A stretch of 46,488 nt of DNA from a virus. The notes beneath the pieces are model-generated. The model worked only from the letters and a program-made list of their open reading frames with translations, ran no database searches and was not told the origin of the DNA. The DNA is taken from IMG/VR virus record IMGVR_UViG_3300028027_000084, positions 1-46,488 of that record; one strand, written 5' to 3'. This document shows positions 17,020 to 44,716 of the stretch, in pieces. The position numbers were made by a program, and so were the translations under genes. The first letter of the stretch is position 1. The number at the start of each line of letters is the position of its first letter.

Positions 17020-20000
17020 ATGATAGACACATACGAAAAACTGAATACAACACTTACGCAGGTAGATTATATTGTACATTTGAGCGACGTGCATATTCGT
17101 TTGACACAGCGTCATCAAGAATACCGTGAAGTGTTTAGTAAAGTATATGAGCAAATCAAAAACACTCCACCGAACACTGTTGTAGTAAATACTGGCGATA
17201 CTTTTCATTCAAAGTGCGATCTTTCACCCGAAGCCGTTCAGTTAGCAAGCGAGTTTCTAAAGAACTGCGCCGATATTCGTCCTACTATCATTATACCAGG
17301 CAATCATGATTGCTTGCTTACCAATGTTAGTCGTTTGGATAGTATATCTCCGGTTGTAGATAATCTAGCACACAAAAATTTGTATTATCTAAAAGAAAGC
17401 AAGTTATATTCATTTGCCAACTTGCTGTTCAACAATATGTCTATCTTCGAGGATCATACTTCGTTTATCAAGATGAAGAATGTTTCCAAGAAAATCAAAA
17501 CCGAGTTTGATATAAAGATTGCTTTATATCACGGCGGCGTATTTGATGCCAAGACAGACATTGGTTATACCGTAACCAACAAGAGTATCATGAATGATAT
17601 GTTTGATGGTCATGACATGGCACTACTCGGTGACATTCATTTAGCACAAACTTTACAAGAGTATGATCGCGTAAATGAAAAACCAATAATAAGATATGCC
17701 TCTAGTTTGCTACAACAAAATCACGGCGAAGCATTACTTGGTCACGGCTTTTCGTTGTGGGATGTAAAGAACAGAGCATATAAACATATCGAAATACCAA
17801 ATGATTATGGTTATTTCACTATTGATATTGATGATGGCAAGTTGATTACAGACATAAGCACAATGCCAAAGAAGCCAAAACTTCGTGTGCGTTGTAAGGA
17901 AACAATTGCGTCCGAAGTAAAGAAGGTAATCAATGAAGTCAAAAAGACTCACGAAATCTCGGATATTATTTATATGAGAGTTGACGGCGATGACTCTGCT
18001 AGGGTCGCAAGTGTGCAAGCCGCAGCAAACTTGAGCCAAATTTCTAATGTTGAATATCAAAACAAACTTATTTCAGAATCTCTAAAAGCAAAATATCCAG
18101 ACATTATGGATGATGATACGCTTGAGTCTGTTCATAACATCAATAAAGAGTTGAACACTGATTTGAGTAAAGATGATACTTCGCGCAACATTCGTTGGAA
18201 GCCAATCAAGTTTGAGTTTAGCAATATGTTTAGTTATGGCGAAAACAATGTTATAGACTTTACAAAACTATCAGACGTATATGGATTGTTTGCGTCAAAT
18301 GCTAGTGGCAAATCGTCTCTAATGGACGCATTATGCTTTATCGCATTTGACAAGTCTGCTAAAGCATTCAAGGCAACTCATGTGATGAATTCACAAAAGA
18401 TGTCGTTTCATGGCAAGTTCACATTTGAGATAAACGATGTTCAGTATGTTATTGAACGTAAAGGTATTCGCGACAAGAAAAACAATGTAAAAGTTGATGT
18501 AAACTTCTATAAAATGGAGAAAGAAGAAAAGATTTCTCTAAATAGCGAGGCACGTCGCAGTACCAATGAAATCATTCGTGACTATATCGGCGAATATGAT
18601 GACTTTGTTTTGACCTCACTTGCTCTGCAAGGCAATCAAGGTTCATTTATTGAAATGGGTCAAACTGAACGCAAGGAGTTGTTGTCACAGTTTATTGGAC
18701 TAAATGTGTTTGATAAACTTGCTGCCAAAGGTTCCGATAGACTAAAAGAAATCACGGGCGCTATCAAAACATTCAACAAAGAAAACAATCAACAAAAGAT
18801 TGAAACCATCAAGAATGATTTGAATTTGCTTGAGTCAAAGTTGATTGACTCCAACATGCAAAAAGAACAACTTGCTATCAACAAGCAAAAGTTGGACGAT
18901 GATATTCAAGCCAATCAAATTAAGATTGTTACTCTTGAAAATGTTCCAACCAATGTTGCGGCTTTACAAAAAGAAAAGAGCGGGTTTGCAGCAAAGAATG
19001 ACCAAGCAAAGCAATCTATTGAAAAAATAGACGCGGATACATCCGAAAAGAAAAAAGAATATGCGGACGCATCGGCTAAATTAACCACATTTGCTACAGA
19101 CCTAAAAGAAAAATACGAAAAGTATAACAGTCTTTCTCGTAACAAGCAGCGTATGGAGCAAGAAATGGACAAGCTTAAGACGCTTGTTAATGAAAAGCTA
19201 AAGAAACTTGCTCACCTTGACAAGCATGAGTATGATCCAACTTGTAAGTTCTGCTGTGATAATATCTTCGTAAAAGATGCTGTGGCTACTCGTGGTAGTT
19301 TGAGCAAAGATAAAGCAGAGGCTAAAGAATTATCAGACGCATTAACAGCTATCAAAGTTGAAATAACCAATCTTGAGTCGTTTGTTCCACAATATGAAGA
19401 AAGCGTAACATTAAAAGAGCGAGTCAATACTCTCGCGGCTTTCTTGTCTAAAAAAGAACTTGAGCGGTCTAATCTAGCCAACGCCGTTGAAAAGAACAAT
19501 GCTCGTTCGGTTGAAATAGATTCTCAAATAGAACTTTACGAAAAGTCCAAAGAAGTTATTGAAAGCAACAAGATTATAGAAGCGGCTATATCCGGTTTGA
19601 GAAACGAGGCTACTACAATTACTGCAAGATTGAAGAATATCAACGCAGAATATGTTGATGCTTATAGTCGCAAAGTTTCATTGACCGACCAACTCAAGAA
19701 TATAGAAACTCAATTGATAGAGATTGAAAAATACGAAAATGATCAAGCAGCATATCAATACTATTTGACTTCTATTGGCAAAGACGGCGTTCCATATAAA
19801 ATCATATCAGACGCTATTCCAAGAATTGAGCAAGAAGTTAATAACATATTGTCACAAATCGTTGAGTTTACTATAAACATAGAAACCGACGGAAAAAATG
19901 TTAATGTATATATCAAATACGAAGATAGAAAGTGGCCGCTTGAACTATGCTCGGGTATGGAAAAGTTTGTAAGTGCGCTTGCTTTAAGAGTTGCCTTGGT

Positions 20001-20226
20001 TAATATCAGCAATCTACCACGTCCAAACTTCCTTGTTATAGACGAGGGTATGTCGGCTCTTGATGCTTCTAATATGGCAATGGTTCATTCATTATTTGAC
20101 TATATGAAGACTCATTTTGACTTTATCATTGTAATAAGTCACCTTGACGCTATGAGAGACATGGTAGACAAGCAGCTGGAAATCAAGAAAGAAAACGGGT
20201 TTAGTAAGATAGATAATACGGTTTGA
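17020..20226 (+). CDS. Mre11-Rad50 (gp47-gp46, SbcD-SbcC) single-chain fusion
   Basis: 1068 residues uniting two proteins that are separate in T4. The N-terminal nuclease (about 1-350) has D23-x-H25, G-D60-T, G-N95-H96-D97, Y-H171-G and G-D-I-H207. The ATPase begins near 395 with a Walker A-like A425-S-N-A-S-G-K431-S, where the usual first Gly is Ala. Two long coiled coils flank a zinc hook C742-K-F-C745. The ABC signature is S978-G-M-E, Walker B is L-V-I-D1008-E1009, and V-I-S-H-L-D follows. The complex resects DNA ends in recombination-dependent replication. Fusion would enforce 1:1 stoichiometry. The end of the gene is duplicated downstream. Confidence 0.93.
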   Translation: MIDTYEKLNTTLTQVDYIVHLSDVHIRLTQRHQEYREVFSKVYEQIKNTPPNTVVVNTGDTFHSKCDLSPEAVQLASEFLKNCADIRPTIIIPGNHDCLLTNVSRLDSISPVVDNLAHKNLYYLKESKLYSFANLLFNNMSIFEDHTSFIKMKNVSKKIKTEFDIKIALYHGGVFDAKTDIGYTVTNKSIMNDMFDGHDMALLGDIHLAQTLQEYDRVNEKPIIRYASSLLQQNHGEALLGHGFSLWDVKNRAYKHIEIPNDYGYFTIDIDDGKLITDISTMPKKPKLRVRCKETIASEVKKVINEVKKTHEISDIIYMRVDGDDSARVASVQAAANLSQISNVEYQNKLISESLKAKYPDIMDDDTLESVHNINKELNTDLSKDDTSRNIRWKPIKFEFSNMFSYGENNVIDFTKLSDVYGLFASNASGKSSLMDALCFIAFDKSAKAFKATHVMNSQKMSFHGKFTFEINDVQYVIERKGIRDKKNNVKVDVNFYKMEKEEKISLNSEARRSTNEIIRDYIGEYDDFVLTSLALQGNQGSFIEMGQTERKELLSQFIGLNVFDKLAAKGSDRLKEITGAIKTFNKENNQQKIETIKNDLNLLESKLIDSNMQKEQLAINKQKLDDDIQANQIKIVTLENVPTNVAALQKEKSGFAAKNDQAKQSIEKIDADTSEKKKEYADASAKLTTFATDLKEKYEKYNSLSRNKQRMEQEMDKLKTLVNEKLKKLAHLDKHEYDPTCKFCCDNIFVKDAVATRGSLSKDKAEAKELSDALTAIKVEITNLESFVPQYEESVTLKERVNTLAAFLSKKELERSNLANAVEKNNARSVEIDSQIELYEKSKEVIESNKIIEAAISGLRNEATTITARLKNINAEYVDAYSRKVSLTDQLKNIETQLIEIEKYENDQAAYQYYLTSIGKDGVPYKIISDAIPRIEQEVNNILSQIVEFTINIETDGKNVNVYIKYEDRKWPLELCSGMEKFVSALALRVALVNISNLPRPNFLVIDEGMSALDASNMAMVHSLFDYMKTHFDFIIVISHLDAMRDMVDKQLEIKKENGFSKIDNTV

Positions 20227-25760: not shown

Positions 25761-28322
25761 ATGAAAATTTTATATATTGCTCCGCATTTATCTACGGGTG
25801 GCTGTCCTCAATTTCTCTTAAAGAAAATACAAGTTTTATATAGTGAGCATGAAATACACTGTGTAGAATACTCAAACCACGGAGGTTTTACGGTTCAAAG
25901 AAATCAAGTTAAAAACTTGCTAGGAGATAGATTTTATGAACTAACAGGAGATCGGTCTGATTTATTTGATATTATTGAAAAAATAAATCCGGAAGTTATA
26001 CATCTTGAAGAAATGCCAGAGTATTTCATGGATGCCAAGATTACTCGTAGATTATATAAAAAAGATAGAAAATATAAAATCATTGAAACTTCTCACGACA
26101 GCAGTTTTGACCCAGCAAACAAAGTAGTATTTCCAGATAAAGTTATTCTTGTTAGTGAATATCAAAGACAAAATCTAAAGTCACTTCCCGTTCCATTAGA
26201 AGTATGTGAGTATCCAGTATTGATTAAGCCACGCAAGCCGCGTGAAGAAGCACTTAAAGTACTTGGATTAAATCCAAACAAGAAACACGTTGTTCACGTT
26301 GGATTATTTACTCCACGCAAGAACCAAAAAGAAATCATAGAGTATGCTCGTATGATGCAAGATTATCCTATTCAGTTTCACTTTATCGGAAATCAAGCCG
26401 ACAATTTTAAGTTTTATTGGGAACCTTTGATGAAAGATTTTCCAGCAAACTGCAAATGGTGGAATGAACGCAAAGACGTTGATAATTTTTATCAAGCCGC
26501 CGACTTATTTTTGTTCGTGTCAAAAGACGAAGATGGTAATAAAGAAACCAGCCCACTTGTTATTCGTGAAGCCGTTTCATTTAATGTACCTACTCTCATA
26601 TATAACTCACCTGTTTATATGAACATGTATAACAAATACAACAACATCAAATATCTTGATTTTAACGACAAACAAGCAAACTGCAACAAAATTTTAAAAA
26701 CTGTAAATTTACTATCTGAAACGCCTATGACAAACTTCAATGTACAATATGATAAAACGAGCAACAAGGTTACTTTTAGCTCTTCAAGAAAAATAGACAA
26801 TGCTCTAATATCTGTAAAAGAATTGGATTCGCGTACTGTTATGTGGGCGGTAAAATATCCAGAGTTCCCAGCCAATTGCAACTATTGGATTATTCCTTGC
26901 AGAAAAGAAGTTATTGATTTTGAAACCGACCCATTTATTGGAGGACTTCTTGTTGAACTTTATGAAAACGATGTGTTGGTAGGATCAAAGTCTATCCGCA
27001 TCAAACCGGAAGTATATAACAAGATGCAATCGAAGTTGAAGAATAACTTTGAGCCAACGTATATCAATTATACAGAATTCTTCGTAGATAGAATTTATGA
27101 CAAGTATCTAAAAGGTAAGACATTTGATACGGTTGTTGACGTTGGTGCCAATATCGGTCTATGGACGGAATATATCATGCATTCTACAAACTGCAAAAAG
27201 GTATTCTCGGTAGAACCAAACACAGAAGCATTAAAGGTACTAAAGAATTCTTTTGATAGTAAAGTCACGGTTGTTGAAAAAGCGATGGCAAATAAAGACG
27301 GTGAACTTGAATTCTTTGTTGACGCAAACAATTCTACCATATCATCAGTTGCTGAGTTTGATGGTCGTAGTAATATAACATACAAAGTCGGAGCTATATC
27401 GTTCAAGTCCTTTTTATCTCAATATTTGTATAGCACAGAAAAGATTGATTTGTTCAAGGTTGATATTGAAACGGGTGAATATGATCTGTTTGAATCATTC
27501 GACGAATCCGATTTTGCCAGAATCAACAACATGCTCGTTGAGTTTCATGTAATGGGCGGCAGAACATATGAAAAAGATGCTACAAATCTTATCAATATGA
27601 TAAAGAAAGCCGGTTTCTTTGTTTACGCGAATAGCATTCACAAACACGGCGGATTCTTGTTTGCAACCAGAGAAGAAATGAAAGAAGACAAACGCAATGC
27701 TGAAATGACAGCGTTGCTTAATACTCGCACATGTCCAGACAAGCGCGATTTAGCTTCTCTTGTAAATGAACTATTTCCAAGCGGCAAGGGTGTTGAAATC
27801 GGCGTATTAAACGGCGAATATTCCAAGATTATTTTGGAACGTTGGGAAAATGGTCAACTATTCATGGTCGATGCATGGAGACATCTCGATGGTTATATTG
27901 ACATGAACGGTCAAGATGACAAATATCACCACGAATGCTTAGTAAAAGCGTGTCAAAATACAAAGCAATGGGAAAACAGAGCACATATCATCAGAATGGA
28001 TAGTGTTGCTTCTGCAAATATGTTCCCAGATGAATATTTTGACTTTGTGTATATTGACGCCGACCATTCATACGAAGGAGTCGTTCGTGATATGAAAGCC
28101 TGGTGGCCAAAGGTAAAGAAGGGTGGATTGTTCTGTGGCGATGATTATATCCCACAAGATGGTGATATCTGGATGACGGTTGCTGGCAAAGAACCTGTAT
28201 ATGCTGGTAAGTTCGGCGTTCGTAAAGCTGTGAATGAGTTTATGGAAAAGAACGGACTTAAAGTATATGAAACTACCAGCGAGTCATACTGGAAACAATG
28301 GTACTCCTTTAAACCTTTTTAA
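25761..28322 (+). CDS. Glycosyltransferase GT4 / FkbM methyltransferase / class I methyltransferase fusion
   Basis: 853 residues in three parts. Residues 1-320 are a GT-B glycosyltransferase like family 4, with H-V-G-L-F-T-P-R-K-N-Q and an E-T-S-P-L-V-I-R-E-A motif (E-x7-E, nucleotide-sugar binding). A beta module (about 325-425) follows. Residues about 440-640 are an FkbM-type SAM methyltransferase (V-V-D-V-G-A-N-I-G-L-W; L-F-K-V-D-I-E-T-G-E). Residues about 650-853 are a second SAM methyltransferase (V-E-I-G-V-L-N-G-E-Y; V-Y-I-D-A-D-H-S-Y-E-G). It probably adds and O-methylates sugars. It lies directly after the fibre gene; substrate unknown. Confidence 0.82.
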   Translation: MKILYIAPHLSTGGCPQFLLKKIQVLYSEHEIHCVEYSNHGGFTVQRNQVKNLLGDRFYELTGDRSDLFDIIEKINPEVIHLEEMPEYFMDAKITRRLYKKDRKYKIIETSHDSSFDPANKVVFPDKVILVSEYQRQNLKSLPVPLEVCEYPVLIKPRKPREEALKVLGLNPNKKHVVHVGLFTPRKNQKEIIEYARMMQDYPIQFHFIGNQADNFKFYWEPLMKDFPANCKWWNERKDVDNFYQAADLFLFVSKDEDGNKETSPLVIREAVSFNVPTLIYNSPVYMNMYNKYNNIKYLDFNDKQANCNKILKTVNLLSETPMTNFNVQYDKTSNKVTFSSSRKIDNALISVKELDSRTVMWAVKYPEFPANCNYWIIPCRKEVIDFETDPFIGGLLVELYENDVLVGSKSIRIKPEVYNKMQSKLKNNFEPTYINYTEFFVDRIYDKYLKGKTFDTVVDVGANIGLWTEYIMHSTNCKKVFSVEPNTEALKVLKNSFDSKVTVVEKAMANKDGELEFFVDANNSTISSVAEFDGRSNITYKVGAISFKSFLSQYLYSTEKIDLFKVDIETGEYDLFESFDESDFARINNMLVEFHVMGGRTYEKDATNLINMIKKAGFFVYANSIHKHGGFLFATREEMKEDKRNAEMTALLNTRTCPDKRDLASLVNELFPSGKGVEIGVLNGEYSKIILERWENGQLFMVDAWRHLDGYIDMNGQDDKYHHECLVKACQNTKQWENRAHIIRMDSVASANMFPDEYFDFVYIDADHSYEGVVRDMKAWWPKVKKGGLFCGDDYIPQDGDIWMTVAGKEPVYAGKFGVRKAVNEFMEKNGLKVYETTSESYWKQWYSFKPF

Positions 28323-28331
28323 TATATTTTT

Positions 28332-29150
28332 ATGATACTATTTTTATATAGCGACAAGAATTGTGAACATCAAGCGATGGCTTGCATCAAATCATTGACC
28401 CACAAAATAACAGACGATGTAAAGATTGTATATTATACAATTGGCTTCGACAGTAGTTTTGAGTTCAAGAACTTATACAAAGTAAAATTGGATTATAAGC
28501 CACAATATCCAACTTTCCATTTCTATAAAGCGGAGTTGTCTTTGCTTACAATGCAGATGTTTCCGAATGAGTATTATATGTTCACGGACACTGACGTATT
28601 GTTCTCTCGCAATTTTAATTTCAATGACCACAAATATAACGAGTCATATCCTATGGCAAGTTATGGACCACATGAATATCCATTCATTTGGCAAGAAGTC
28701 AACGGCGTTAAGATTATATTCAACGAAAAGAAGCTAATGACATATCATGGATTGGAAAATAGAAGTATGAGATACTGCTGGTCTTGCTTTTATGCTTTCA
28801 ATCCAAACTGCAAAGAGTTCTTTGAAGAGTATACTTCAATCTGTCAAAATAGATATTTACTTGATCGTCGCAAAGATTATTTTCCATATGCCGACGAAAC
28901 TGCATTTAATGTATGCTTGTGGAAACGCGGTGCAAACAAGAATCTAAAACAAGCATTTGTAAATACACATCTATTAGAAACTGTTAAAGTGGTTGAAGAA
29001 CGCAAAGCCAAAAATACAGTATTCATGAACAACGTGGACGCATTTGGTTCAAGTTGGGAAGCGGTGGAAGATCCAGACCAAGTATTGTTATATCACGGAT
29101 TCAAAGAAAAAGTAGAAATGAATAAAACCGTTGATTATCTGCTGGCATGA
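28332..29150 (+). CDS. GT-A-type glycosyltransferase
   Basis: 272 residues. F-T-D-T-D-V-L-F near residue 85 is a D-x-D metal/nucleotide-sugar site in the usual place after a hydrophobic strand, and Y-A-D-E-T-A-F-N near 195 is an acidic acceptor-site motif typical of GT8/GT77-like enzymes. The N-terminal L-F-L-Y-S-D-K-N and the A-C-I-K-S-L helix fit a GT-A fold. The family is not certain. It overlaps the following FkbM gene by ATGA, so it is part of the same operon. Confidence 0.65.
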   Translation: MILFLYSDKNCEHQAMACIKSLTHKITDDVKIVYYTIGFDSSFEFKNLYKVKLDYKPQYPTFHFYKAELSLLTMQMFPNEYYMFTDTDVLFSRNFNFNDHKYNESYPMASYGPHEYPFIWQEVNGVKIIFNEKKLMTYHGLENRSMRYCWSCFYAFNPNCKEFFEEYTSICQNRYLLDRRKDYFPYADETAFNVCLWKRGANKNLKQAFVNTHLLETVKVVEERKAKNTVFMNNVDAFGSSWEAVEDPDQVLLYHGFKEKVEMNKTVDYLLA

Positions 29151-30061
29151 AACCGTTTGATGTATTTTTAGATAAAGCCAATTTAGTGGTATATCTAAAC
29201 CACAAACTGGATACTGCGGAGAAATACACAATTTCTGTCAATGACTTATTTGTTGACTGTGTATATTTTATATGGCCGCAGAACACTGCCCCAAAGGACA
29301 GACTTTGGGTTCAGCCTCTTTCACATAAAATAAATGCATTTACAAAAAACAATCCAAATTTTTCCGGTTTTATTGTAAAAATATACAACAAAGATATGCG
29401 TCTCGTTCAGGTTGAGAAGCTAATAGTAAATAAAACCGCTAAACGATTTACTACCACATTTGATTCTGGTCAATTTGATGCAACCGGTCCATCATATGCG
29501 GACTTCTTCTTTGGTGATTTGTGCAAAAATATAGACGTTTCCGGAACGGTTGTTGACGCAGGTGCCAATGTTGGGTTCTTTACATTATATGCTAAATACT
29601 ATGGAGCTAAACGGATATACAGTATAGATCCAGATCCACTACCATTCTTTTATTTAGAAAAGAATTTTGGTCAAGACCCTAGCATAACTTTATTAAATAA
29701 AGGAATGAATGTTTCGGACGATGGTATGGATATAAATTTATCCACCATTGCCTCTGTGGGTACGGGAGAATTTTTAACAGAGGCAAACTCCGTCAAACTA
29801 CATATACCCACTATATCTATAGATTCTATATTGAAAATAGAAGATACTATAAATTTGTTAAAGCTTGATATTGAAGGAACGGAGTTTAAAGTAATAGAAA
29901 ATCTAAATGAAAAGCATTTTGGCAAGATAAACCAATTTTTTATAGAATTTCACTTTAATCCAAAACCAATTGCTAAAAAACTAATAGAAAATGGATACAA
30001 AGTAGAATACAGAGATTCCGATGAAAATAGTAACGTTGGGTTTATATACGCTGTGAAATGA
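29147..30061 (+). CDS. FkbM-family SAM methyltransferase
   Basis: 304 residues. The N-terminal ~100 residues are a beta module resembling the linker of the 853-residue protein (opening F-D-V-F-L-D-K-A-N-L-V-V, then a W-x-Q-P-L strand). The methyltransferase core has V-V-D-A-G-A-N-V-G-F-F (motif I), Y-S-I-D-P-D-P (motif II acid) and L-L-K-L-D-I-E-G-T-E, all characteristic of FkbM O-methyltransferases that modify sugars or glycolipids. It is ATGA-coupled at both ends. The base composition is more AT-rich than the flanking structural genes by eye, which could mean later acquisition. Confidence 0.83.
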   Translation: MKPFDVFLDKANLVVYLNHKLDTAEKYTISVNDLFVDCVYFIWPQNTAPKDRLWVQPLSHKINAFTKNNPNFSGFIVKIYNKDMRLVQVEKLIVNKTAKRFTTTFDSGQFDATGPSYADFFFGDLCKNIDVSGTVVDAGANVGFFTLYAKYYGAKRIYSIDPDPLPFFYLEKNFGQDPSITLLNKGMNVSDDGMDINLSTIASVGTGEFLTEANSVKLHIPTISIDSILKIEDTINLLKLDIEGTEFKVIENLNEKHFGKINQFFIEFHFNPKPIAKKLIENGYKVEYRDSDENSNVGFIYAVK

Positions 30062-31038
30062 AAAAGCAATTATTGATAGTTGGTTCATATCCATCCGAGC
30101 AAGAAACAGAAAAAGTTTTACAATCCGTTTTGGAACGAGTAAATAATGACTTTGATATTTTGTTGGTGACACATTGTCCAGTCAGCAAAGAAATACAAAA
30201 TATGGTTAAATATTTTATATACGATTGTCGCAACGAGTTTATACCATCAAATCCAAATGTCAATTTTTACGCGGATTATCCCAAGTTCTTTTTTAGAATA
30301 TATCAAACCTCAAATCATAAAAATCACAGTCATGCAGTGTTTCGTTCTATAATGAACGCGATTAATTTTGCAAAAGATTCGTATGATTCATTTGTTTATA
30401 TAGAAGGTGACTGTTTATTTTCAAAAGAGGATGTTGAAAAGTTAAAAAATCTAAAAAATATATCTGAGACTAACAATAAAAAAGCTCTGTTTTTTAAATT
30501 TGATTATGTGTTTGTTTCGACAATATTTTATTCGTCAATTGAATTTTTTAAAAATGCATTTAAATTTTCAACTTCTCCCGATGAATATATAAATAACTGT
30601 AAAGAAGTTGGGGCATATGGAACGCTAGAAAGTTTCTTATATAAAAGCGTTGAGCACAAAAAATTATTTGGGGACGTTCATATGCTTGAAAATATTGGAA
30701 TTGAAACATATTTTAAAACGAGTAAGCATGGTATGAATATTTTTGTAGACGGAGAAACTGTGGTTGATTCTGCTGCGGTTTCCACGGTTGTAAAAATAGA
30801 AAATACTCAAGAGATTGCATTTGTTTATCTAAACAAAAATGTAGGAGTAGAGGAGTCCAACATATACGTCGATGATGTTTTTTACGAAACCATACCTGCA
30901 AATTATGCTGTAAGAGCATTTAAAATAAACCCAGCAAAAAATGAATTTGTTGTTCGAGTCGGCAATAGGAAATTATTAAAATTCAAAAAAGATAGTATAC
31001 TTGACCCAAAAAATAAAAATTTTGTAAGATTTAAATAA
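30058..31038 (+). CDS. Putative glycosyltransferase with C-terminal beta module
   Basis: 326 residues. The opening Q-L-L-I-V-G-S-Y-P-S-E and the strand F-V-Y-I-E-G-D-C-L-F near 115 resemble a GT-A core with an E-x-D in place of D-x-D. Residues about 225-326 form a beta-rich tail with Y-L-N-K-N-V and N-I-Y-V-D-D. No clear family is recognised, and the assignment leans on its place in an ATGA-coupled series of sugar genes. The gene is strikingly AT-rich. A nucleotidyl or glycan-binding role is possible instead. Confidence 0.5.
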   Translation: MKKQLLIVGSYPSEQETEKVLQSVLERVNNDFDILLVTHCPVSKEIQNMVKYFIYDCRNEFIPSNPNVNFYADYPKFFFRIYQTSNHKNHSHAVFRSIMNAINFAKDSYDSFVYIEGDCLFSKEDVEKLKNLKNISETNNKKALFFKFDYVFVSTIFYSSIEFFKNAFKFSTSPDEYINNCKEVGAYGTLESFLYKSVEHKKLFGDVHMLENIGIETYFKTSKHGMNIFVDGETVVDSAAVSTVVKIENTQEIAFVYLNKNVGVEESNIYVDDVFYETIPANYAVRAFKINPAKNEFVVRVGNRKLLKFKKDSILDPKNKNFVRFK

Positions 31039-31043
31039 AATAC

Positions 31044-31072
31044 TTGACATCAATCAAAAATTTAAATATATA
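31044..31072 (+). promoter_or_regulatory. Sigma70-like promoter, TTGACA-17-TATATA
   Basis: A perfect -35 (31044-31049) is followed by 17 bases and TATATA (31067-31072), 39 bases before the ATG at 31112. A second overlapping pair, CTGACA near 31075 and GATAAT near 31090, has short spacing and is weaker. This is the best host-type promoter in the window. Confidence 0.62.
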
Positions 31073-31111
31073 CACTGACACTAATGCGGGATAATACAAT
31101 TTAAAATAATC

Positions 31112-33502
31112 ATGAAAATAATCAATATCAATCCAGGTCTTATATCAATTCCACCAAATGGGTGGGGTGCAGTAGAGAAAATTATTTGGGATTATCATCT
31201 TGAATTGACCAAGCAAAAAGTCCAAAGTGAGATTTTATATCTTAATGATGTAAAATACGACGACAGTATGGTTGTTCATGTACATGTCGCCAACTTGGCA
31301 ATCATGTGCCATGAGCGCGGCATTCCTTATATATTCAGTATTCATGACCATCATGCATATCTATTTGGTAAAGACTCACATTGTTTTAAACAAAATCTAA
31401 AGGCAATTGAACACAGCGTATTTTCATTGTCACCATGCAAGTTCCTTGTTGATTATTTCGGCAGCAAGAAGCTTCGTTATTTTTCCCACGCCGTTAATAC
31501 CAACACCTTTGTAAATAAAAATTATAATGTAGAAGGTACCAAGTTATTGTGCGTAGCAAATAATGGTTATGCCGACAATCAATCCAAGGACAGAAAAGGA
31601 TTTAAGATTGCTATACAAGCAGCTATGGCTCTTGATTTGCCATTAACGATTGCGGGTCCAAGCAACAACAAGAAATTTTTTGATACACTTGAGCCAGAGT
31701 TTAACAACTATAGTAAGCTCACCAAGCTATTTGATTTGAACGAAGCCGAATTGATTGAGTTGTATAATAACCACAGCATCTTTTTACATTTTTCGGAATT
31801 AGAGGCTGGTCATCCAAACTTGACACTACTCGAAGCTATGAGTTGTGGATTGCCTGTTGTTGGCACGTTTGAACAAAAGACATACAACGGCATGATTGTG
31901 ACCGAGCGGGATGTAAGTCAAGCCACTTCTGCTATTAGTAAAATAATGATAGATTACAAGAAATATAAACAAGCTGCTTTAGATGCGGCTAGTGCAAACT
32001 CATATTCTGCCAGAGTGTTAGAATTAGCTGGACTATACAGTGAATATAGAGAAAAGATATTTGGTAATCAATTGATTGATAGCTATAATGAATGTAAGCA
32101 AGTTTATATTGAACCAAAGAACACTATAAGAATATCGCACGAGAAAAATGGTACAAAAGTAACCATCGGCGGCTTGAATGAAATCAAATATAAAGTAAAG
32201 TTTGTTGATTATAGCAACAATCATGTAACATACGAATGCCCTATCACCATTGGCATGTGGACAATGTGCCCATCTAAATACAAGAACGATTGGGGTGTTG
32301 AAGTTTATGATATTACAAATGGTACAGAAGTATTAGTTGAAAAGAATAAATTTCCAGCAAATGAAACTGTGTCTAAATCTATCACGCCAGAAAAGAATAA
32401 AATCAAAATTACTTTTGATGACGGTGCCAAGGTTGATATAAAAGGTGATGAAGCAAAAAAGTATAAAGTAAAGTTCATTGATGCATATACCAATCAAGTA
32501 ACTTACGAAACCACGCTTAACAATAATATGTGGGCAACAACTGCTACAAAATACTATAATAAATGGTTGGTTGAAGTATATGATATTACAGACGGTGGCG
32601 AAACACTTGTAGAAAAACACTCTTTTGATGCCAAAGACAAAACTGTAAAAATAGTATTAGATAGTGAAAGCTTTGGCGACTTGATTGCTTGGATTGGTGC
32701 AATTGATGAATTCCAAAAGAAACATCAATGCAAACTTGATTGCGTAGTATTCAATAAGGTATTAAGACCAATATTTGAAAAGAACTATCCAAACATCAAG
32801 TTCCTAGCAACGGATGTATATGCCGACCCATATTATGCCAAGTATAAGATTGGATATTTTGCAGCTCCAAACTATGTTAATCATATAACCAAAGATCCAA
32901 GACTACTAGGACTATGTGCTATTGCCACAACCATTCTTGGTTTGACCGACGTTGAGTTTAAGCCAAATTTTGCCGTTGAACCACACAAGTCAAAAAAGAA
33001 ATATGTTTGTATAGCTACACAAAGCACGTCCCAAGCAAAGTATTGGAACAACAAAAAGGGTTGGGATGAAGTCGTTGGTTACTTAAACAAGAGTGGCTAT
33101 GAAGTATGGTGTATCGACAAGTTCAGCAGCTTTGGTGTCAAAGAAAGTATGAACTATATGCCAAAAGGATGTATCGACAAAACGGGCAATCTTTCGTTTG
33201 AAGAAAGAATGTCTCAACTCAAGGGTGCCGAATTCTTTATTGGATTAAGTTCCGGCTTATCATGGCTTGCTTGGGGCGTTGGCGTTCCTGTTGTATTGAT
33301 TAGCGGGTTTACAGCCAAATGGAATGAATTCTATACTCCATACAGAGTCATGAATGAAACTGTGTGTAATAGTTGCTGGAATGATGTATCTTGCCCATTT
33401 AACAAGGGAGATTGGTTCTGGTGTCCACGTAATAAGGACTTTGAATGCTCCAAACAGATTACATCCTCTATGGTTATTGAGCATATCAAAAAGCTTATAT
33501 AA
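31112..33502 (+). CDS. GT4 glycosyltransferase fused to an autotransporter-heptosyltransferase-like domain
   Basis: 796 residues. Residues 1-320 are a GT4 enzyme (E-L-E-A-G-H-P-N-L-T-L-L-E: E-x7-E). Residues about 335-525 hold two copies of a beta module (K-V-K-F-V-D-Y and K-V-K-F-I-D-A, each ending V-E-V-Y-D-I-T). Residues about 525-796 resemble the Aah/TibC autotransporter heptosyltransferases: S-F-G-D-L-I-A-W, G-L-S-S-G-L-S-W-L-A, and a Cys-rich end with C-N-S-C-W-N-D, C-P-F, W-C-P and E-C-S-K, as in the TibC iron-binding finger. Family members O-glycosylate repetitive adhesins with heptose. The acceptor here is unknown; the Ser-rich fibre upstream is a candidate. Confidence 0.82.
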   Translation: MKIININPGLISIPPNGWGAVEKIIWDYHLELTKQKVQSEILYLNDVKYDDSMVVHVHVANLAIMCHERGIPYIFSIHDHHAYLFGKDSHCFKQNLKAIEHSVFSLSPCKFLVDYFGSKKLRYFSHAVNTNTFVNKNYNVEGTKLLCVANNGYADNQSKDRKGFKIAIQAAMALDLPLTIAGPSNNKKFFDTLEPEFNNYSKLTKLFDLNEAELIELYNNHSIFLHFSELEAGHPNLTLLEAMSCGLPVVGTFEQKTYNGMIVTERDVSQATSAISKIMIDYKKYKQAALDAASANSYSARVLELAGLYSEYREKIFGNQLIDSYNECKQVYIEPKNTIRISHEKNGTKVTIGGLNEIKYKVKFVDYSNNHVTYECPITIGMWTMCPSKYKNDWGVEVYDITNGTEVLVEKNKFPANETVSKSITPEKNKIKITFDDGAKVDIKGDEAKKYKVKFIDAYTNQVTYETTLNNNMWATTATKYYNKWLVEVYDITDGGETLVEKHSFDAKDKTVKIVLDSESFGDLIAWIGAIDEFQKKHQCKLDCVVFNKVLRPIFEKNYPNIKFLATDVYADPYYAKYKIGYFAAPNYVNHITKDPRLLGLCAIATTILGLTDVEFKPNFAVEPHKSKKKYVCIATQSTSQAKYWNNKKGWDEVVGYLNKSGYEVWCIDKFSSFGVKESMNYMPKGCIDKTGNLSFEERMSQLKGAEFFIGLSSGLSWLAWGVGVPVVLISGFTAKWNEFYTPYRVMNETVCNSCWNDVSCPFNKGDWFWCPRNKDFECSKQITSSMVIEHIKKLI

Positions 33503-33537: not shown

Positions 33538-36500
33538 ATGGATATCTCGATCAAGAACCTCAAAAAGTATATTTTTGAACCAAAAACCGAGGCTCTGCGC
33601 TTAAACAGAGCCAAGGATATATTGTCTCAAGACTTGGTTATTACCGAGAAAGTTGACGGCACCAAGCTAACATTAGTTAGAACAGAACAAACAGACGCCG
33701 CCGATTATACCAAGAATTGGGTAGTAGCATATAAAGGAACGGTATTATATGCCAAAGAGTTTGCTCATTTGGGCGATAAAGAAAAGGGCGATATATCTCA
33801 ATCTTCTGTTGGTATAGGTCAATATTCTATGATATTTGATCATCTAAAGAAAATCAATGGTAAGATTGGCAGCATTCCAAAAAGCACAGAGTTTAGCGTA
33901 GAGTTTGCTCAAAACAAAGATACACTTACTCGCACATATGTAAACAAAGGTGGACTGTTTTTAAGAAGCTATGGCAAGGTTGTATATAGAATTATCGACG
34001 GCAACCTTCATACAAGTGTACAAGGTGAAGAAGTAACCGAATATACTCAAGTCAAGAAAATGGCAGATCTACTTGAAATATCAGCATTTCCTATATTCTT
34101 TCAAGGTAAGCTATCCAAAGAAAATCTATTAAAGAACTCATTGATTAATTCCAAACTAACAAATGTTGATTGGAATAATCCACTTGATGTTATTAGTAAG
34201 TTCTCCGACGCTATTTTAGCAGTTCCATCTACACTAGGTGGTACAACCGAGGGTGTTGTATTAAAATTGGCTAATGGTGAGTTCTTTAAACTTGTACAAG
34301 CGGACCAATATGACGCAGAAGTTCGTGGTGCAAAGAAAGAAATGTATAAACTCGATCCAGAAGCTGCCGCAGCATACTTCCAACAAATCAGAGCACTTAT
34401 CCAAAATATTTTTGATGCAGTTGGTACTGAAGGAAAATCTGAAGAAGATGTTATTTCAGATTCTAATTTTTATATTGCCAAGAATGAAAAGAAGCTAAAG
34501 AAGTTTTTTGACTCATTACAAGCGATTGCGGGCAATAAAAAGAACCTTGTTCAAATCAAAGACGACATCCACGATACGGTTAGATTGCTTGTATCTAAAC
34601 GTAGATTGCTTGGTTCAACTGCCAAAACACTTGCTCTTATTCCAATTGCCGGTAAGCCATTGCATATAGGTCACTGGAAGCTAATAGAAAAAGCAGCATC
34701 TGAAAATGATGCCGTAGTTGTTTATACATCATCGTCTGATAGAATAAAGAAGGGCGAGTTTCCAATCAAGGGTGATGACTTTGTTCGTTTATGGAGTGAT
34801 GTATTCATTCCAGCGTTGCCAAAGAATGTTAGAGTAAAGTTTGTAGATTCACCAGTGCGTGCTGTTATGCATGAAATCGCGTGGCTTGAACAAACAACGG
34901 TACAAGACAATGCTAAAGTACCAGTCATAAATTTATACTCAGACAAAGACGACGTTGAAACCAATTTCAAAGACGAAGACTTGAAAAAGTATCCATCGCT
35001 TTTGGCAGCGGGTAAGATAAAAAAAGTTGGCGTTGAAAGAACCGCTACAGTAAATGTAAGTGGTACAAAGATGCGCGAGTTCTTGTTGAATAATGATAAA
35101 ACATCATTCTTAAAATATTTGCCACCCGTATCTGCGCGTGACAAAGAAGAAATTTGGAATACTCTAATCAAAAACAAGCCAGAGGTAAATGAAACTAATC
35201 CATATTCAAAGTTTGCCGAAGAAGTTGTAAATGAAATAGACAAAGAAATGTTTAGCGAAGGTGGTTGGAGATCTACTTCCACACAATCAACGATTATAAC
35301 TCCAAAGAAAGTTGAAACAATATTAAGTGCGATGGACAAGTTTGTATTAGAATTTAATTCATATTCAAATCTTCCTCCTATAGAATCTAATGGTCCAGTT
35401 GGTTCGGCGATGTATTATAAACAAGATTTGGAAAAAGATGATGTGAAGTATGGCGATATAGATATTCAAATCGTATTACCAGAAGAAAGTAATGATAGAA
35501 CATCTCAACTAGCATCTAACAAAAAGTATTCAGACAAGATTCGTCAGTTCATTCAAGAAAAGAAACCAAGTTATATCTATCCAAACTTTCAAGATAAAGA
35601 CTTTGGTACAGGATATTTGATATTCAACGTTGGTGGTGAAAACATCCAAGTTGATTTAGTTTTGTCATATAAAGTGTCTGCCGAATGGACAAAAATTAGA
35701 ACAACTCCAGAAAAAGGACTAAAAGGATTTGTTACAGGAACTTTATTAAGCGCACTATCAGATGCTCTTAATGTTGTATTAGGATCAAACACTAATCCGT
35801 ATGTAAATACAGTAGATGGTAAAGTTGTATCATCTTTAATCAAAACAAACGCAAAGCCCGTGTTCTTTAGCCCAAATCAAGTATTCTTGGATATATTAAA
35901 GTTCTATAGCAATCTTGCGGGCGTTCAAAAAGCAAACCCGTCAGCATTACAAGGCTATTATGGATTGGACGCAAACGATCCATCGTTGAAGAAGAAATGC
36001 GAAGCCGTGGTTGCTTTAAGTAAAGCACTAGATAATAACAGAGCATTTGATAAAGGAGTTATTGTATCAAAGGGCGGAATAACATTTAAATCTCGCGAAG
36101 AATTTGTAAAATATGTACTAGATACATTCATAAAGAATATGGAATCTGCTAGTACAGCAAAAAAATTAGAAAAAGCAGAAACACCAGAAGCTATGAAAAA
36201 CATTGAAAAAATAAAACACGACGCTAATCTTGGTATAGAATTGGCAAAGCAACTAATCAGAGAAGAAATTGCACTGTTGAACGAGTCTGGTCAATCGGTT
36301 GCTGCTGTAGATGACAAAACTCCAAAGACAGTAAATGGTCAACCGGCTCAAGCAACAACCAAGTTAAAAATCATAGACCAATCTGGTAAAGATATTCGCA
36401 GTTCTGTTTCAGCCGATGTAAAAGAGTTGGTATATGCACTAAACAGCAAGGTTGGTTTTTGGAAGAAAAACAATCCATATATTGAAAATGGATTTGTATT

Positions 36501-37458
36501 CAACGGCAGCTCTCAATATCTAATGAGCGGAGATGCCAAGTATAAAGATTTGGCTAAATATAAATCAGGCTTCGGCGACGTTGATGTTATTGTTCCAAAA
36601 CAAAAACTAGATGCAATGGAAGCATATTTGGATGGTATTGATGACAGACAAGTAGAATGGAAGCCAACTCCAAAGAATAAAGTATCAAAGAATTTTTATT
36701 ATGTTGGTCGCACCAAGAGTCAACGTGCCTTGGCTGGTCAAACCGTAACACTGTGGTACTATGCACCAGTTAAACAAGTTGTTCAAATTGACTTTGAAGG
36801 TGATGAAATGATACTAGACCCACAAGGATTTGAAAAGCCTTCTGAATGGAACAAATTTATCAAAGATTCTCCTTGGCAAGATTTGACCATGGGCATCAAA
36901 GGATTGGCTGGCGCTATATTACTTCGTGGCTTGACCAGAGCAGCAACCGCACTTCCAAATGCAGTATATGTTACAAACGCAAATGCTGCCAAAATTGAAT
37001 CGGGTCAGCTAAAAGGACTTGTTGATGCTAAAGGCAAGAGCGTTGTTTCTACAAATGCTACACACGCACTTCCTGCCGAATATACACTTAATACAAGTGG
37101 TTCTGGCCACGCCGGTATTCGCAAGGCTTATAGACTGGTTGCAAAAAACATGGACTATCAAGGAAAGAAAGTAAATGTTTATACCGACGTTTCGGCCAGT
37201 GATACAAAGCCAGAAGATCGCATAGATAATGTATCAAAGGTATTTGAAATTATATTCAAACGCAAACCATCCGGCACAGACCTAGAAAACTTTAGAAGTT
37301 ATGTTGGATTGCTTACTTTGATGAAATCTTTACCAAAAGATGTTCAAGTCAAAGCACTGGAGCGTGCTAAAGAAGGTCTTGCTCAAGCAGGATTAGAACC
37401 GGCTGAATATGCTCCTATTCAAAAAGCAGCCAAAACGATTTTAGGAATATCAATATAA
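33538..37458 (+). CDS. Four-module nucleotidyltransferase protein (ligase-like, HIGH-type, two Pol-beta-like)
   Basis: 1306 residues. Module 1 (about 1-260) has ligase/capping motifs: K38-V-D-G, S-V-E-F-A-Q, E238-G-V-V-L-K and F-F-K-L-V. Module 2 (about 360-540) has a HIGH nucleotidylyltransferase signature (H376-I-G-H379) and S-G-T-K-M-R-E-F, as in NMN or cytidylyl transferases. Modules 3 (about 600-750) and 4 (about 980-1110) each have a Pol-beta-like G-S, then G-D-I-D-I or G-D-V-D-V, then a third acid in Q-V-D-L-V or Q-I-D-F-E. Helical peptides near 556-580 and 900-920 separate modules. Substrates are unknown. Start chosen as the first ATG after a short gap with TATACTTATA. Confidence 0.75.
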   Translation: MDISIKNLKKYIFEPKTEALRLNRAKDILSQDLVITEKVDGTKLTLVRTEQTDAADYTKNWVVAYKGTVLYAKEFAHLGDKEKGDISQSSVGIGQYSMIFDHLKKINGKIGSIPKSTEFSVEFAQNKDTLTRTYVNKGGLFLRSYGKVVYRIIDGNLHTSVQGEEVTEYTQVKKMADLLEISAFPIFFQGKLSKENLLKNSLINSKLTNVDWNNPLDVISKFSDAILAVPSTLGGTTEGVVLKLANGEFFKLVQADQYDAEVRGAKKEMYKLDPEAAAAYFQQIRALIQNIFDAVGTEGKSEEDVISDSNFYIAKNEKKLKKFFDSLQAIAGNKKNLVQIKDDIHDTVRLLVSKRRLLGSTAKTLALIPIAGKPLHIGHWKLIEKAASENDAVVVYTSSSDRIKKGEFPIKGDDFVRLWSDVFIPALPKNVRVKFVDSPVRAVMHEIAWLEQTTVQDNAKVPVINLYSDKDDVETNFKDEDLKKYPSLLAAGKIKKVGVERTATVNVSGTKMREFLLNNDKTSFLKYLPPVSARDKEEIWNTLIKNKPEVNETNPYSKFAEEVVNEIDKEMFSEGGWRSTSTQSTIITPKKVETILSAMDKFVLEFNSYSNLPPIESNGPVGSAMYYKQDLEKDDVKYGDIDIQIVLPEESNDRTSQLASNKKYSDKIRQFIQEKKPSYIYPNFQDKDFGTGYLIFNVGGENIQVDLVLSYKVSAEWTKIRTTPEKGLKGFVTGTLLSALSDALNVVLGSNTNPYVNTVDGKVVSSLIKTNAKPVFFSPNQVFLDILKFYSNLAGVQKANPSALQGYYGLDANDPSLKKKCEAVVALSKALDNNRAFDKGVIVSKGGITFKSREEFVKYVLDTFIKNMESASTAKKLEKAETPEAMKNIEKIKHDANLGIELAKQLIREEIALLNESGQSVAAVDDKTPKTVNGQPAQATTKLKIIDQSGKDIRSSVSADVKELVYALNSKVGFWKKNNPYIENGFVFNGSSQYLMSGDAKYKDLAKYKSGFGDVDVIVPKQKLDAMEAYLDGIDDRQVEWKPTPKNKVSKNFYYVGRTKSQRALAGQTVTLWYYAPVKQVVQIDFEGDEMILDPQGFEKPSEWNKFIKDSPWQDLTMGIKGLAGAILLRGLTRAATALPNAVYVTNANAAKIESGQLKGLVDAKGKSVVSTNATHALPAEYTLNTSGSGHAGIRKAYRLVAKNMDYQGKKVNVYTDVSASDTKPEDRIDNVSKVFEIIFKRKPSGTDLENFRSYVGLLTLMKSLPKDVQVKALERAKEGLAQAGLEPAEYAPIQKAAKTILGISI

Positions 37459-37516: not shown

Positions 37517-38137
37517 ATGAAAAATACAGACATTATCAAATCATATCTCGCGGGCGAACGTCCTTATGTAAAAGTAGGATATACCGGTGACAAAGACAAG
37601 TATATCATCCGCAAGGTTGGCGAAACTTGGACAGACTCTGCTGGTAAGCAATGGATAGAAAAAGAATCTGGTCCACAGACCGTTACTCGCGTCATGGACA
37701 TTATTCGTGAAGAAGTAAACGATAAATGCACCTGCTGCGGTATGGAAATTCGTTGGGGTAAGAAGCGCGATTATAAGATGTTTTATAAAACCAAGAAATG
37801 CTTCGACTGCTTGATTGAAGAAGAAACCCAACTTCGCGTTAAAGGTCAATTCAAGTTATACGAAACCAAGAAGCTACTTGAAAACGAAATATCTTACTTG
37901 AATGACATTCGCCAAAAGCTAAAAGAAAGTAAAGAATATCTTGCCAGCGATGCTTCCAAGACTCTTACATATGTAAACTCAAACGGACTTGTAGAAGAAT
38001 GGGATAATGTTTCTAGACAAGAACTTACCGAGAGTATTGAAAAAGATTTTAAGACCTGCTTGAAGAAAATCAAATTGGCAGAAAAAGAGTTGAAGAAGAC
38101 TAATGACACAATTAACAAAGTTCTTGCCACAAAATAA
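37517..38137 (+). CDS. Zinc-ribbon protein with coiled coil, beside terminase
   Basis: 206 residues. A C-x2-C pair (C-T-C-C-G) and a second C-F-D-C about 28 residues later form a probable zinc ribbon near residues 72-100. The C-terminal half (N-E-I-S-Y-L-N-D-I-R-Q-K-L, E-K-D-F-K-T-C-L-K-K-I) is a long charged coiled coil. Two genes before the large terminase, it sits where a small terminase subunit could be, and coiled coils occur in those, but gp16 similarity is not visible and a zinc ribbon is not typical. An AAAGG precedes the ATG. Confidence 0.7.
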   Translation: MKNTDIIKSYLAGERPYVKVGYTGDKDKYIIRKVGETWTDSAGKQWIEKESGPQTVTRVMDIIREEVNDKCTCCGMEIRWGKKRDYKMFYKTKKCFDCLIEEETQLRVKGQFKLYETKKLLENEISYLNDIRQKLKESKEYLASDASKTLTYVNSNGLVEEWDNVSRQELTESIEKDFKTCLKKIKLAEKELKKTNDTINKVLATK

Positions 38138-43545: not shown

Positions 43546-44088
43546 ATGAATCTAACAGACATTGCCAAGAAAATACTAAGTGAAGATACATGGGGCAACA
43601 ACCCATCTGCGGCTGCTCCACAAGCACCGGGCCGTTCACCAACAGCAACACAACCGCCAGCATCGCCGAATGCTAAGATGATTGATATTTCTGATACTTT
43701 CAAAAATTTTAAACTATCACTTGAAAAGCAAGAAGACGCCGCTGTAAAAAAACTTGTTGATGAACTAAGTAAACAATTCTTAAAAAAGAGTGTTGTTGTT
43801 AAAGCATCAAAAGGCTCTGTTGGTCAAATTGAAAAAGAATACTCTTTCCCAGTAAGCAGAATTGATGTTCGTTATATGAAAGACAAATACTATATTGTAT
43901 TCTCCGGTAAAGAAGGTAACGAAGCAGAATCTGAATATTACTTAGACGACTCTCAAATTGAAGTTGATGGCTATGGTCAAGAAGCCCCAACAATGCAATC
44001 TTCACTTGGCAAAGGTCAAGTTGGCGGAATCAAATACCCACAAACAATGGGCATTGCATCAAAACGAAACATTGTACCACAAAACTAA
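43546..44088 (+). CDS. Small head-cluster protein with Pro-rich linker
   Basis: 180 residues from the ATG at 43546; the upstream in-frame ATG at 43507 would overlap the previous gene and lose the family-like N-terminus. It starts L-T-D-I-A-K-K-I-L-S-E-D, giving L-S-E as a possible cleavage site, then a Pro/Ala-rich linker (about 20-45), a helix, and a C-terminal beta region (Y-Y-I-V-F-S-G-K-E-G) . No recognised family. It is one base from the protease start (TAACATG), so likely co-translated. Confidence 0.72.
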   Translation: MNLTDIAKKILSEDTWGNNPSAAAPQAPGRSPTATQPPASPNAKMIDISDTFKNFKLSLEKQEDAAVKKLVDELSKQFLKKSVVVKASKGSVGQIEKEYSFPVSRIDVRYMKDKYYIVFSGKEGNEAESEYYLDDSQIEVDGYGQEAPTMQSSLGKGQVGGIKYPQTMGIASKRNIVPQN

Positions 44089-44089
44089 C

Positions 44090-44716
44090 ATGAGCAAACA
44101 ACTATTAGTAGATTTTATTCCTTTTGATATCACTCCACAAATGTTGAGTGAAGCAAAAGCAAACACAAATGGTCCGTTGGTTCTAAAAGGCCCGCTACAA
44201 AAAGCCGGTGAAAAGAATCATAACGGTCGTGTATATCCACGCGAAGTATTAGAGCGTGAAGTTGAAAAGTATCAACAAATTATCAAAGAGCGTCGTGCTC
44301 TTGGCGAACTTGACCATCCAGAATCAAGCATCATCAATCTAAAGAATGTGTGCCATAACGTTACAGAATGTCACTGGGAAGGTGATACTGTAGTAGGTAC
44401 AATTGAAATTTTAACAACTCCAAGTGGTAATATTGCCCGCGATTTGATTCGTAACAATATCCGTATCGGTATCAGTAGCCGTGGATTGGGTAGTGTTCGT
44501 AATGTAAATGAAAATACTGTTGAAGTACAAGACGACTTTGAGTTGCTTTGCTTTGACCTTGTATCATCACCATCTACTCGCGGTGCTTATATGAATCTTG
44601 CCGAAGGTATCAACCACAACAAACAGTTGATCGGTGGTACTCAAGACAAAAAAGACATTAACAAATATCTAAAAATCGAAGGCATCATTCGTGATATTCT
44701 ATCAGAAATTCGTTAA
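44090..44716 (+). CDS. gp21: Prohead core protease, gp21-like
   Basis: 208 residues (T4 gp21 212). The start is the ATG at 44090, since the longer frame from 43958 lies inside the previous gene. Family marks are N-G-R-V-Y-P-R near 45, G-E-L-D-H76-P-E with the catalytic His, and R-I-G-I-S129-S-R-G with the catalytic Ser, then D-L-V-S-S-P-S. In T4 this enzyme trims core and shell proteins after (I/L)-x-E during head maturation. The C-terminus ends I-I-R-D-I-L-S-E-I-R, resembling its own target peptides, which fits self-cleavage. Confidence 0.95.
   Translation: MSKQLLVDFIPFDITPQMLSEAKANTNGPLVLKGPLQKAGEKNHNGRVYPREVLEREVEKYQQIIKERRALGELDHPESSIINLKNVCHNVTECHWEGDTVVGTIEILTTPSGNIARDLIRNNIRIGISSRGLGSVRNVNENTVEVQDDFELLCFDLVSSPSTRGAYMNLAEGINHNKQLIGGTQDKKDINKYLKIEGIIRDILSEIR

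What the first reader, a model, noticed from the sequence alone, without database searches (positions are those of the whole stretch)
33538..37458. One 1306-residue protein with four predicted nucleotidyltransferase modules of three fold types
The sequence shows ligase motifs (K38-V-D-G, E238-G-V-V-L-K), a HIGH-type nucleotidylyltransferase site (H376-I-G-H379, S-G-T-K-M-R), and two Pol-beta-like sites (G-D-I-D-I with a later V-D; G-D-V-D-V with a later I-D). I know of no described enzyme with this combination. It could be an RNA or tRNA repair machine, a NAD- or nucleotide-based counter-defence system, or a set of effectors delivered in one chain. The two Pol-beta-like modules may be a diverged pair. 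Chemistry and substrates are inference.
Basis: partly seen in the sequence, partly recalled or inferred. Interest (0 to 1): 0.85.

Follow-up and report, generated by a model that had tools for sequence, protein, structure and literature searches.

The report
Phage RNA-repair enzymes fused into one
A large virus of bacteria carries, in one giant protein, an RNA-joining enzyme and three nucleotide-adding enzymes that related viruses keep as separate neighbouring genes, most likely a kit for mending RNA that the host cuts in self-defence, possibly packed in the virus head and cut into pieces there.

Summary
Window 33538-37458 is one 1306-aa T4-like phage ORF with four modules: A, an Rnl2-fold RNA ligase; B, a HIGH (NMNAT/PPAT-like) nucleotidyltransferase; C and D, two distantly related Pol-beta-type nucleotidyltransferases. 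Catalytic motifs are conserved across relatives and all modules are under purifying selection. AlphaFold2 plus Foldseek support the folds.

The combination is a functional unit. Relatives show A-B-C-D fused, A-B-D fused, D and A-B as adjacent genes (the common state), or D, a ligase-like gene and a HIGH enzyme as three neighbouring genes. C is a later insertion that elsewhere stands alone. In unfused loci a calcineurin-like phosphoesterase and a P-loop kinase often sit beside the pair, the anatomy of an RNA healing, rebuilding and sealing operon. Best explanation: an RNA (probably tRNA) repair machine, a new variant of the known ligase plus Pol-beta theme. D is not RlaP.

New clue: stand-alone D starts M-GGN or (L/I)xE-GGN, and stand-alone C starts (L/I)xE-GGW. 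The fused protein keeps xE|GGW and LxE|SG at its only two disordered internal junctions, which fit T4 gp21 prohead-protease sites. A capsid-delivered polyprotein is possible but unproven.

The parts
33538..37458 (+). Whole fused ORF, 1306 aa (A-B-C-D)
   Evidence: one open frame, no stops, in about 20 further full-length contigs
33538..34611 (+). Module A, residues 1-358: Rnl2-fold RNA ligase; motif I K38xDG, motif III E122, motif IV E238-G, motif V K251; helical C-terminal part about 260-358
   Evidence: Foldseek T4 Rnl2 2hvr E 2.2e-8; PF09414 sub-threshold E 6e-5; invariants
34612..35172 (+). Module B, residues 359-545: HIGH-superfamily nucleotidyltransferase (NMNAT/PPAT-like), H376xGH379, S508GTKMR513
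   Evidence: profile hits NMNAT 9x6f 5.7e-8 and MJ0541 5e-7; Foldseek NMNAT/PPAT; H379 and S508 invariant in 35 sequences
35173..35253 (+). Linker B/C, residues 546-572, fast evolving, ends in E572; candidate cleavage site MFSE|GGW
   Evidence: dN/dS 0.25-0.66 against the window; xE|GGW in all 15 distinct fused variants; low-confidence segment 570-576 in the model
35254..36216 (+). Module C, residues 573-893: Pol-beta-type nucleotidyltransferase, G622-S623, G639DID642, QVD706; elsewhere a stand-alone phage gene
36217..36282 (+). Linker C/D, residues 894-915, ends LNE915; candidate cleavage site LLNE|SGQ
   Evidence: E|SG at C/D or B/D in nearly all fused variants (L094/L143 have SEAEGKS); low-confidence segment 913-918
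36283..37455 (+). Module D, residues 916-1306: Pol-beta-type nucleotidyltransferase, G990-S991, G1013DVD1016, QID1085FE; phrog_19290
37517..38137 (+). 206-aa protein with two CxxC pairs (putative zinc ribbon), the next gene downstream of the fused gene in nearly every fused locus reaching that far
43958..44716 (+). Prohead (head maturation) protease of the same phage, the candidate enzyme for cutting at xE|G
   Evidence: phrog_207, E 1.2e-53

Best explanation
A phage RNA-repair multienzyme. Inferred order of work: ends of a cleaved RNA, most likely tRNA cut by a host anticodon nuclease, are healed by a phosphoesterase and kinase (neighbour genes in unfused relatives; other genes in this lineage). 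The Pol-beta modules (D, and in this lineage also C) restore lost nucleotides. The Rnl2-type module A charges K38 with AMP from ATP, adenylylates the 5'-phosphate end and seals it to the 3'-OH. Module B, an apparently active HIGH nucleotidyltransferase, supplies or activates a nucleotide for the same reaction path; its substrate is unknown. Shown by computation: folds, conserved active sites, purifying selection, recurrent linkage of D, ligase and HIGH enzyme. Inferred: the substrate, the order of steps and B's role.
For: Folds: A = T4 Rnl2 and B = NMNAT/PPAT; C-D = Pol-beta superfamily, best PDB hits Pol mu, beta and lambda; C related to D. Linkage: A-B-C-D and A-B-D fusions, plus adjacent D then A-B in about 28 of 32 unfused loci. 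Among 50,697 phage records, the same isolates carry both A-B and D, with one extra D-only record that has a ligase-like (KLDG, EGVV) gene and a HIGH enzyme next to D. Healing enzymes: calcineurin-like phosphoesterase in 13 loci, AAA_33 P-loop kinase between D and A-B in four and fused to A-B in another, kinase plus phosphoesterase after A-B in L160, none in the C-only loci. A 297-kb relative encodes 36 tRNAs and a tmRNA. Ligase with Pol-beta RlaP and calcineurin-like phosphatases is an accepted phage RNA-repair theme (PMC7824862).
Against: No biochemistry. Pfam RNA_ligase score is below the gathering cut-off, and motif V lacks the second lysine I recall for T4 Rnl2. B has no known place in RNA repair. 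The same 297-kb phage already has Rnl1, RlaP and AAA_33 kinases near its tRNA genes, so this would be a second repair set, placed in the late structural gene block. No kinase or phosphoesterase was identified directly beside the fused gene. The Foldseek output does not say which of C or D matched.
Confidence: 0.62

Rival explanations
1. Capsid-packaged polyprotein: the fused chain enters the prohead, the prohead protease cuts after E572 and E915, and A-B, C and D are injected with the DNA to act at once on host-damaged RNA. This is a delivery mode for the best explanation rather than a different chemistry.
For: Residue before GGN in stand-alone D is M (20) or E (16) and before GGW in stand-alone C is E (16/16), against 3 of 41 internal xGG: this points to a mature N-terminus at Gly-Gly. 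Fused junctions keep xE|GGW and E|SG, and the internal model segments under pLDDT 50 are exactly 570-576 and 913-918. T4 gp21 cuts after L/I-x-E and short N-terminal propeptides target proteins to the head (PMC9026906). The gene lies in the late head/tail block, D follows the capsid gene in L096, L153 and L162, and the capsid protein of relatives has a matching LIDE|A.
Against: The loose motif is not enriched at N-termini in the 297-kb relative (33 of 302 against 9.8% of internal windows). A has no leader. No virion proteomics of this lineage. About half of stand-alone D have no propeptide. The window's B/C site is F-S-E, not L/I-x-E.
Confidence: 0.3
2. NAD or nucleotide salvage counter-defence: B makes NAD or a related dinucleotide and the ligase-fold and Pol-beta modules modify small molecules or tRNA-linked signals.
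For: B's best profile match is an NMN adenylyltransferase; phages do carry NadR/NadM salvage (PMC9503650).
Against: No NAMPT, Nudix or NadR-type kinase was found beside A-B. The partners that recur are a Pol-beta enzyme, a phosphoesterase and P-loop kinases. A has an Rnl2 fold.
Confidence: 0.12
3. DNA-end or nucleotide-modification machine: ligase plus Pol X-like gap filler acting on phage DNA, for example nick and gap repair of packaged or hypermodified DNA.
For: C-D resembles family X DNA polymerases; the gene lies next to terminase and head genes; the healing enzymes could also serve DNA ends.
Against: A is Rnl2-like, not DNA-ligase-like, in the fold search; no recognisable DNA-binding module in A-B.
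Confidence: 0.15
4. Structural or chaperone role: conserved folds kept as head components without catalysis.
For: Late gene block; weak sub-threshold matches to capsid-type families.
Against: Catalytic residues are among the most invariant positions in every module.
Confidence: 0.04

Closest known systems
T4 RNA ligase 2 (Rnl2, gp24.1) family, PF09414
   Same: fold (2hvr top hit), KxDG, EG motif IV, a C-terminal domain after the nucleotidyltransferase domain
   Different: sub-threshold Pfam score, motif V is K-x-x-Q, fused to a HIGH enzyme and to Pol-beta modules
RNA ligase plus RlaP (PF10127) phage repair pairs (PMC7824862)
   Same: RNA ligase genetically linked to a Pol-beta-type nucleotidyltransferase, with phosphoesterases and kinases nearby
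   Different: C and D do not match RlaP by profile; HIGH enzyme added; all in one chain here
Bacterial Pnkp1-Rnl-Hen1 complex (PMC4411300) and T4 Pnkp-Rnl1
   Same: healing and sealing enzymes assembled together
   Different: no methyltransferase; Pol-beta and HIGH enzymes instead; kinase and phosphatase not in this chain
phrog_27149 (A-B) and phrog_19290 (D)
   Same: these are the family names of the modules in isolates (Firehammervirus CP220 group, Vibrio Va1 group)
   Different: both listed as unknown function and as separate proteins; here fused, with C inserted
NadM/NadR-type NMN adenylyltransferases
   Same: HIGH fold and motifs of module B
   Different: no Nudix or riboside-kinase partner; partner is an RNA ligase

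Membership tests
Rnl2-type RNA ligase | Rnl2 fold | tested here: met
   Foldseek 2hvr E 2.2e-8, 1s68 8.9e-6 on a pLDDT 92.5 model
Rnl2-type RNA ligase | motif I KxDG, motif III Glu, motif IV EG | tested here: met
   K38, D40, G41, E122, E238, G239 invariant in 35 sequences
Rnl2-type RNA ligase | motif V with two lysines (KxK, from own knowledge) | tested here: not met
   K251-L-V-Q254; only K251 is invariant
Rnl2-type RNA ligase | Pfam PF09414 gathering score | tested here: not met
   23.6 bits against 27 for the window protein
Rnl2-type RNA ligase | ATP-dependent RNA sealing | not testable with these tools
   needs assay
HIGH nucleotidyltransferase superfamily | HxGH and S/T-x-x-R signatures | tested here: met
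   H376IGH379, S508GTKMR513; H379 and S508 invariant
HIGH nucleotidyltransferase superfamily | fold | tested here: met
   NMNAT, PPAT and ATP sulfurylase hits
NMN adenylyltransferase | NMN specificity | tested here: inconclusive
   NMNAT and PPAT score alike
Pol-beta nucleotidyltransferase superfamily | GS, GDxD and third Asp in C and in D | tested here: met
   hhalign C against D E 1.4e-7
Pol-beta nucleotidyltransferase superfamily | fold | tested here: met
   Pol mu E 4.1e-4, Pol beta about 2e-3 for the C-D chain; which module matched is not reported
RlaP | PF10127 profile match of C or D | tested here: not met
   family found elsewhere in 4 of 13 genomes, not at C or D; hhalign prob at most 0.5%
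CCA-adding enzyme | curated family match | tested here: not met
   no such match in Pfam scans
Phage RNA-repair system | sealing plus end-rebuilding enzymes genetically linked | tested here: met
Phage RNA-repair system | end-healing kinase and phosphoesterase linked to the ligase | tested here: inconclusive
   present in many unfused relatives; not identified beside the fused gene in this window
T4 gp21-type prohead protease substrate | L/I-x-E cut site at a flexible place | tested here: inconclusive
   C/D site L-N-E|S fits; the window's B/C site is F-S-E|G but L-N-E or L-D-E in some relatives; low-pLDDT junctions
T4 gp21-type prohead protease substrate | present and cut in virions | not testable with these tools
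   no proteomics held for this lineage

The most novel reading that the evidence does not exclude
The ORF is a capsid-delivered RNA-repair polyprotein: ligase-HIGH and two Pol-beta enzymes, packed as one chain, cut by the prohead protease after E572 and E915 to expose Gly-Gly (or Ser-Gly) N-termini, and injected with the genome so that RNA repair is ready before any phage gene is expressed.
Probability: 0.27. Interest if true: 0.85.

Novelty: new variant of a known kind. Interest (0 to 1): 0.63.

Why it matters
It gives a testable function to two phage families of unknown function (phrog_27149, phrog_19290) and to a third (C) without a Pfam or confident PHROG match. It defines a recurring ligase, HIGH enzyme and Pol-beta unit distinct from Rnl-RlaP. 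If the junctions are cut, it would show that phages can pre-load RNA repair in the virion as a polyprotein.

Tried and rejected
D or C as RlaP: rejected. Sequence search of C or D against PDB: nothing useful. A-B in 84,980 cellular genomes with the pattern-based scan: none confirmed. General enrichment of the (L/I/F/M/V)xE[GSAD] motif at N-termini in a 297-kb relative: not found, so the cleavage idea rests on the C and D families alone. Alignments that mixed C-only and D-only rows misplaced C onto D and were replaced by A11. Virion proteomics of CP220 and IBB_35: the passages read in the main texts do not name these proteins and supplements were not available.

Full report
What is there. The window is part of a T4-like phage: Terminase_6N and a T4-type portal lie downstream, then a head maturation protease. 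The gene sits between tail/glycosyltransferase genes and the terminase, in the late structural block. About 20 further contigs encode the same full-length four-module protein at 65-97% identity.

Modules. A-B was modelled at pLDDT 92.5 from 35 diverse sequences. Foldseek puts T4 RNA ligase 2 first (E 2.2e-8), followed by NMNAT, PPAT and other RNA ligases. Profile search supports B as a HIGH nucleotidyltransferase (NMNAT 9x6f, E 5.7e-8). The C-D chain (pLDDT 85.7, pTM 0.53) finds Pol mu, beta and lambda (best E 4.1e-4); the tool does not report which module matched. C and D are distant relatives of each other (hhalign probability 94%). Neither has a Pfam family; D is phrog_19290 and A-B is phrog_27149, both of unknown function.

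Selection. Active-site residues are among the most invariant positions. dN/dS is 0.03-0.17 in all four modules and higher in the linkers, most clearly the B/C linker.

A functional unit. Searching each module apart and mapping all ORFs shows A-B-C-D fused; A-B-D fused without C (L089, L094, L145-L149); D and A-B as separate adjacent genes, usually D then A-B on one strand (about 28 of 32 unfused loci by my count); and in Xanthomonas phage X1 and L167 D with a different, very divergent ligase-like gene (KxDG, later EGxx) and a HIGH enzyme as neighbours or partly fused. In isolates the A-B and D record sets coincide (Campylobacter CP220 group, Vibrio Va1 group), apart from X1. In CP220 the two genes are far apart in the genome but both kept. 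C is not linked to A, B or D in its stand-alone loci, so it was probably inserted into an A-B-D fusion.

Partners. A calcineurin-like phosphoesterase lies near D in 13 loci. An AAA_33 P-loop kinase lies between D and A-B in L104, L109, L116 and L117, and is fused to the N-terminus of A-B in L097. In L160 a Zeta-toxin-type kinase and the phosphoesterase follow A-B. None of the C-only loci has either. With a ligase and Pol-beta enzymes this is the parts list of RNA healing, rebuilding and sealing, as reviewed for jumbo phages (PMC7824862). In the fused clade the next gene downstream, a 206-aa protein with two CxxC pairs (37517-38137), is kept in nearly every locus that reaches that far.

Genome context. 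A 297-kb relative has 36 tRNAs and a tmRNA, and, near them, RlaP, Rnl1 and an AAA_33 kinase. The fused protein is thus a second, different repair set in the late block.

The junction clue. In stand-alone D the residue before GGN is M in 20 and E in 16 distinct cases (one further case, V, is an internal match in a broken gene); in stand-alone C the residue before GGW is E in 16 of 16; internal xGG has E in 3 of 41. The simplest reading is that the mature N-terminus is Gly-Gly, reached by Met removal or by cutting after Glu. The fused proteins keep xE|GGW in all 15 distinct variants and E|SG at the C/D or B/D junction, except L094/L143. The only internal segments of the C-D model under pLDDT 50 are residues 570-576 and 913-918, the two junctions. 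T4 gp21 cuts after L/I-x-E, and 10-19-residue N-terminal propeptides send proteins into the head (PMC9026906). The capsid protein of relatives has LIDE|A in its N-terminal part (that this is its cut site is inference). Against: a loose form of the motif is not enriched at N-termini across the relative's proteome, and there are no virion data. I therefore keep the polyprotein as a hypothesis.

Mechanism. Shown by computation: folds, conserved sites, selection, linkage. Inferred: RNA substrate, tRNA as target, order of steps, role of B. Most likely the Pol-beta modules rebuild a damaged 3' end and A seals it after K38-AMP formation; B's conserved H379 and S508 suggest it is catalytic, but its substrate is open. 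RlaP membership of C or D was tested and rejected. The pattern-based scan of 84,980 cellular genomes found no A-B relative. Papers found do not, in the passages read, describe this combination; this is a limited library.

Noticed in passing
L183-L184, L188 (297-kb relative, G001): 36 tRNA genes and a tmRNA, with RlaP, Rnl1 and an AAA_33 kinase gene within or near the main tRNA cluster.
   Followed up: partly
window 37517-38137: 206-aa protein with two CxxC pairs, the next gene after the fused ORF in nearly all fused loci; no Pfam match.
   Followed up: partly
window 17020-20226: 1068-aa ORF starting with a metallophosphoesterase-like HLSDVH motif, possibly a fused Mre11/Rad50-type (gp47-gp46) protein.
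   Followed up: no
window 25761-33502: Cluster with a methyltransferase-like protein, an FkbM methyltransferase and a double glycosyltransferase (GT1 plus GT9 type) beside the fused gene; the order differs in a relative.
   Followed up: no
L121 5725-7934; L168 4752-6461: Two tandem D paralogues next to each other.
   Followed up: no
L161 6854-9502: D fused to a 536-aa C-terminal extension of unknown type.
   Followed up: partly
BFVD A0A6J5TD12: A 1096-aa phage protein named ParB/Sulfiredoxin has a 345-column structural match at 27% identity to the C-D model, probably a C module in another fusion.
   Followed up: no
L159 3346-5088: D protein begins MGGNLVLISEGGN, i.e. both start types in tandem.
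   Followed up: no
L031 6801-8969 (CP220): The D gene lies directly after a radical SAM gene.
   Followed up: no
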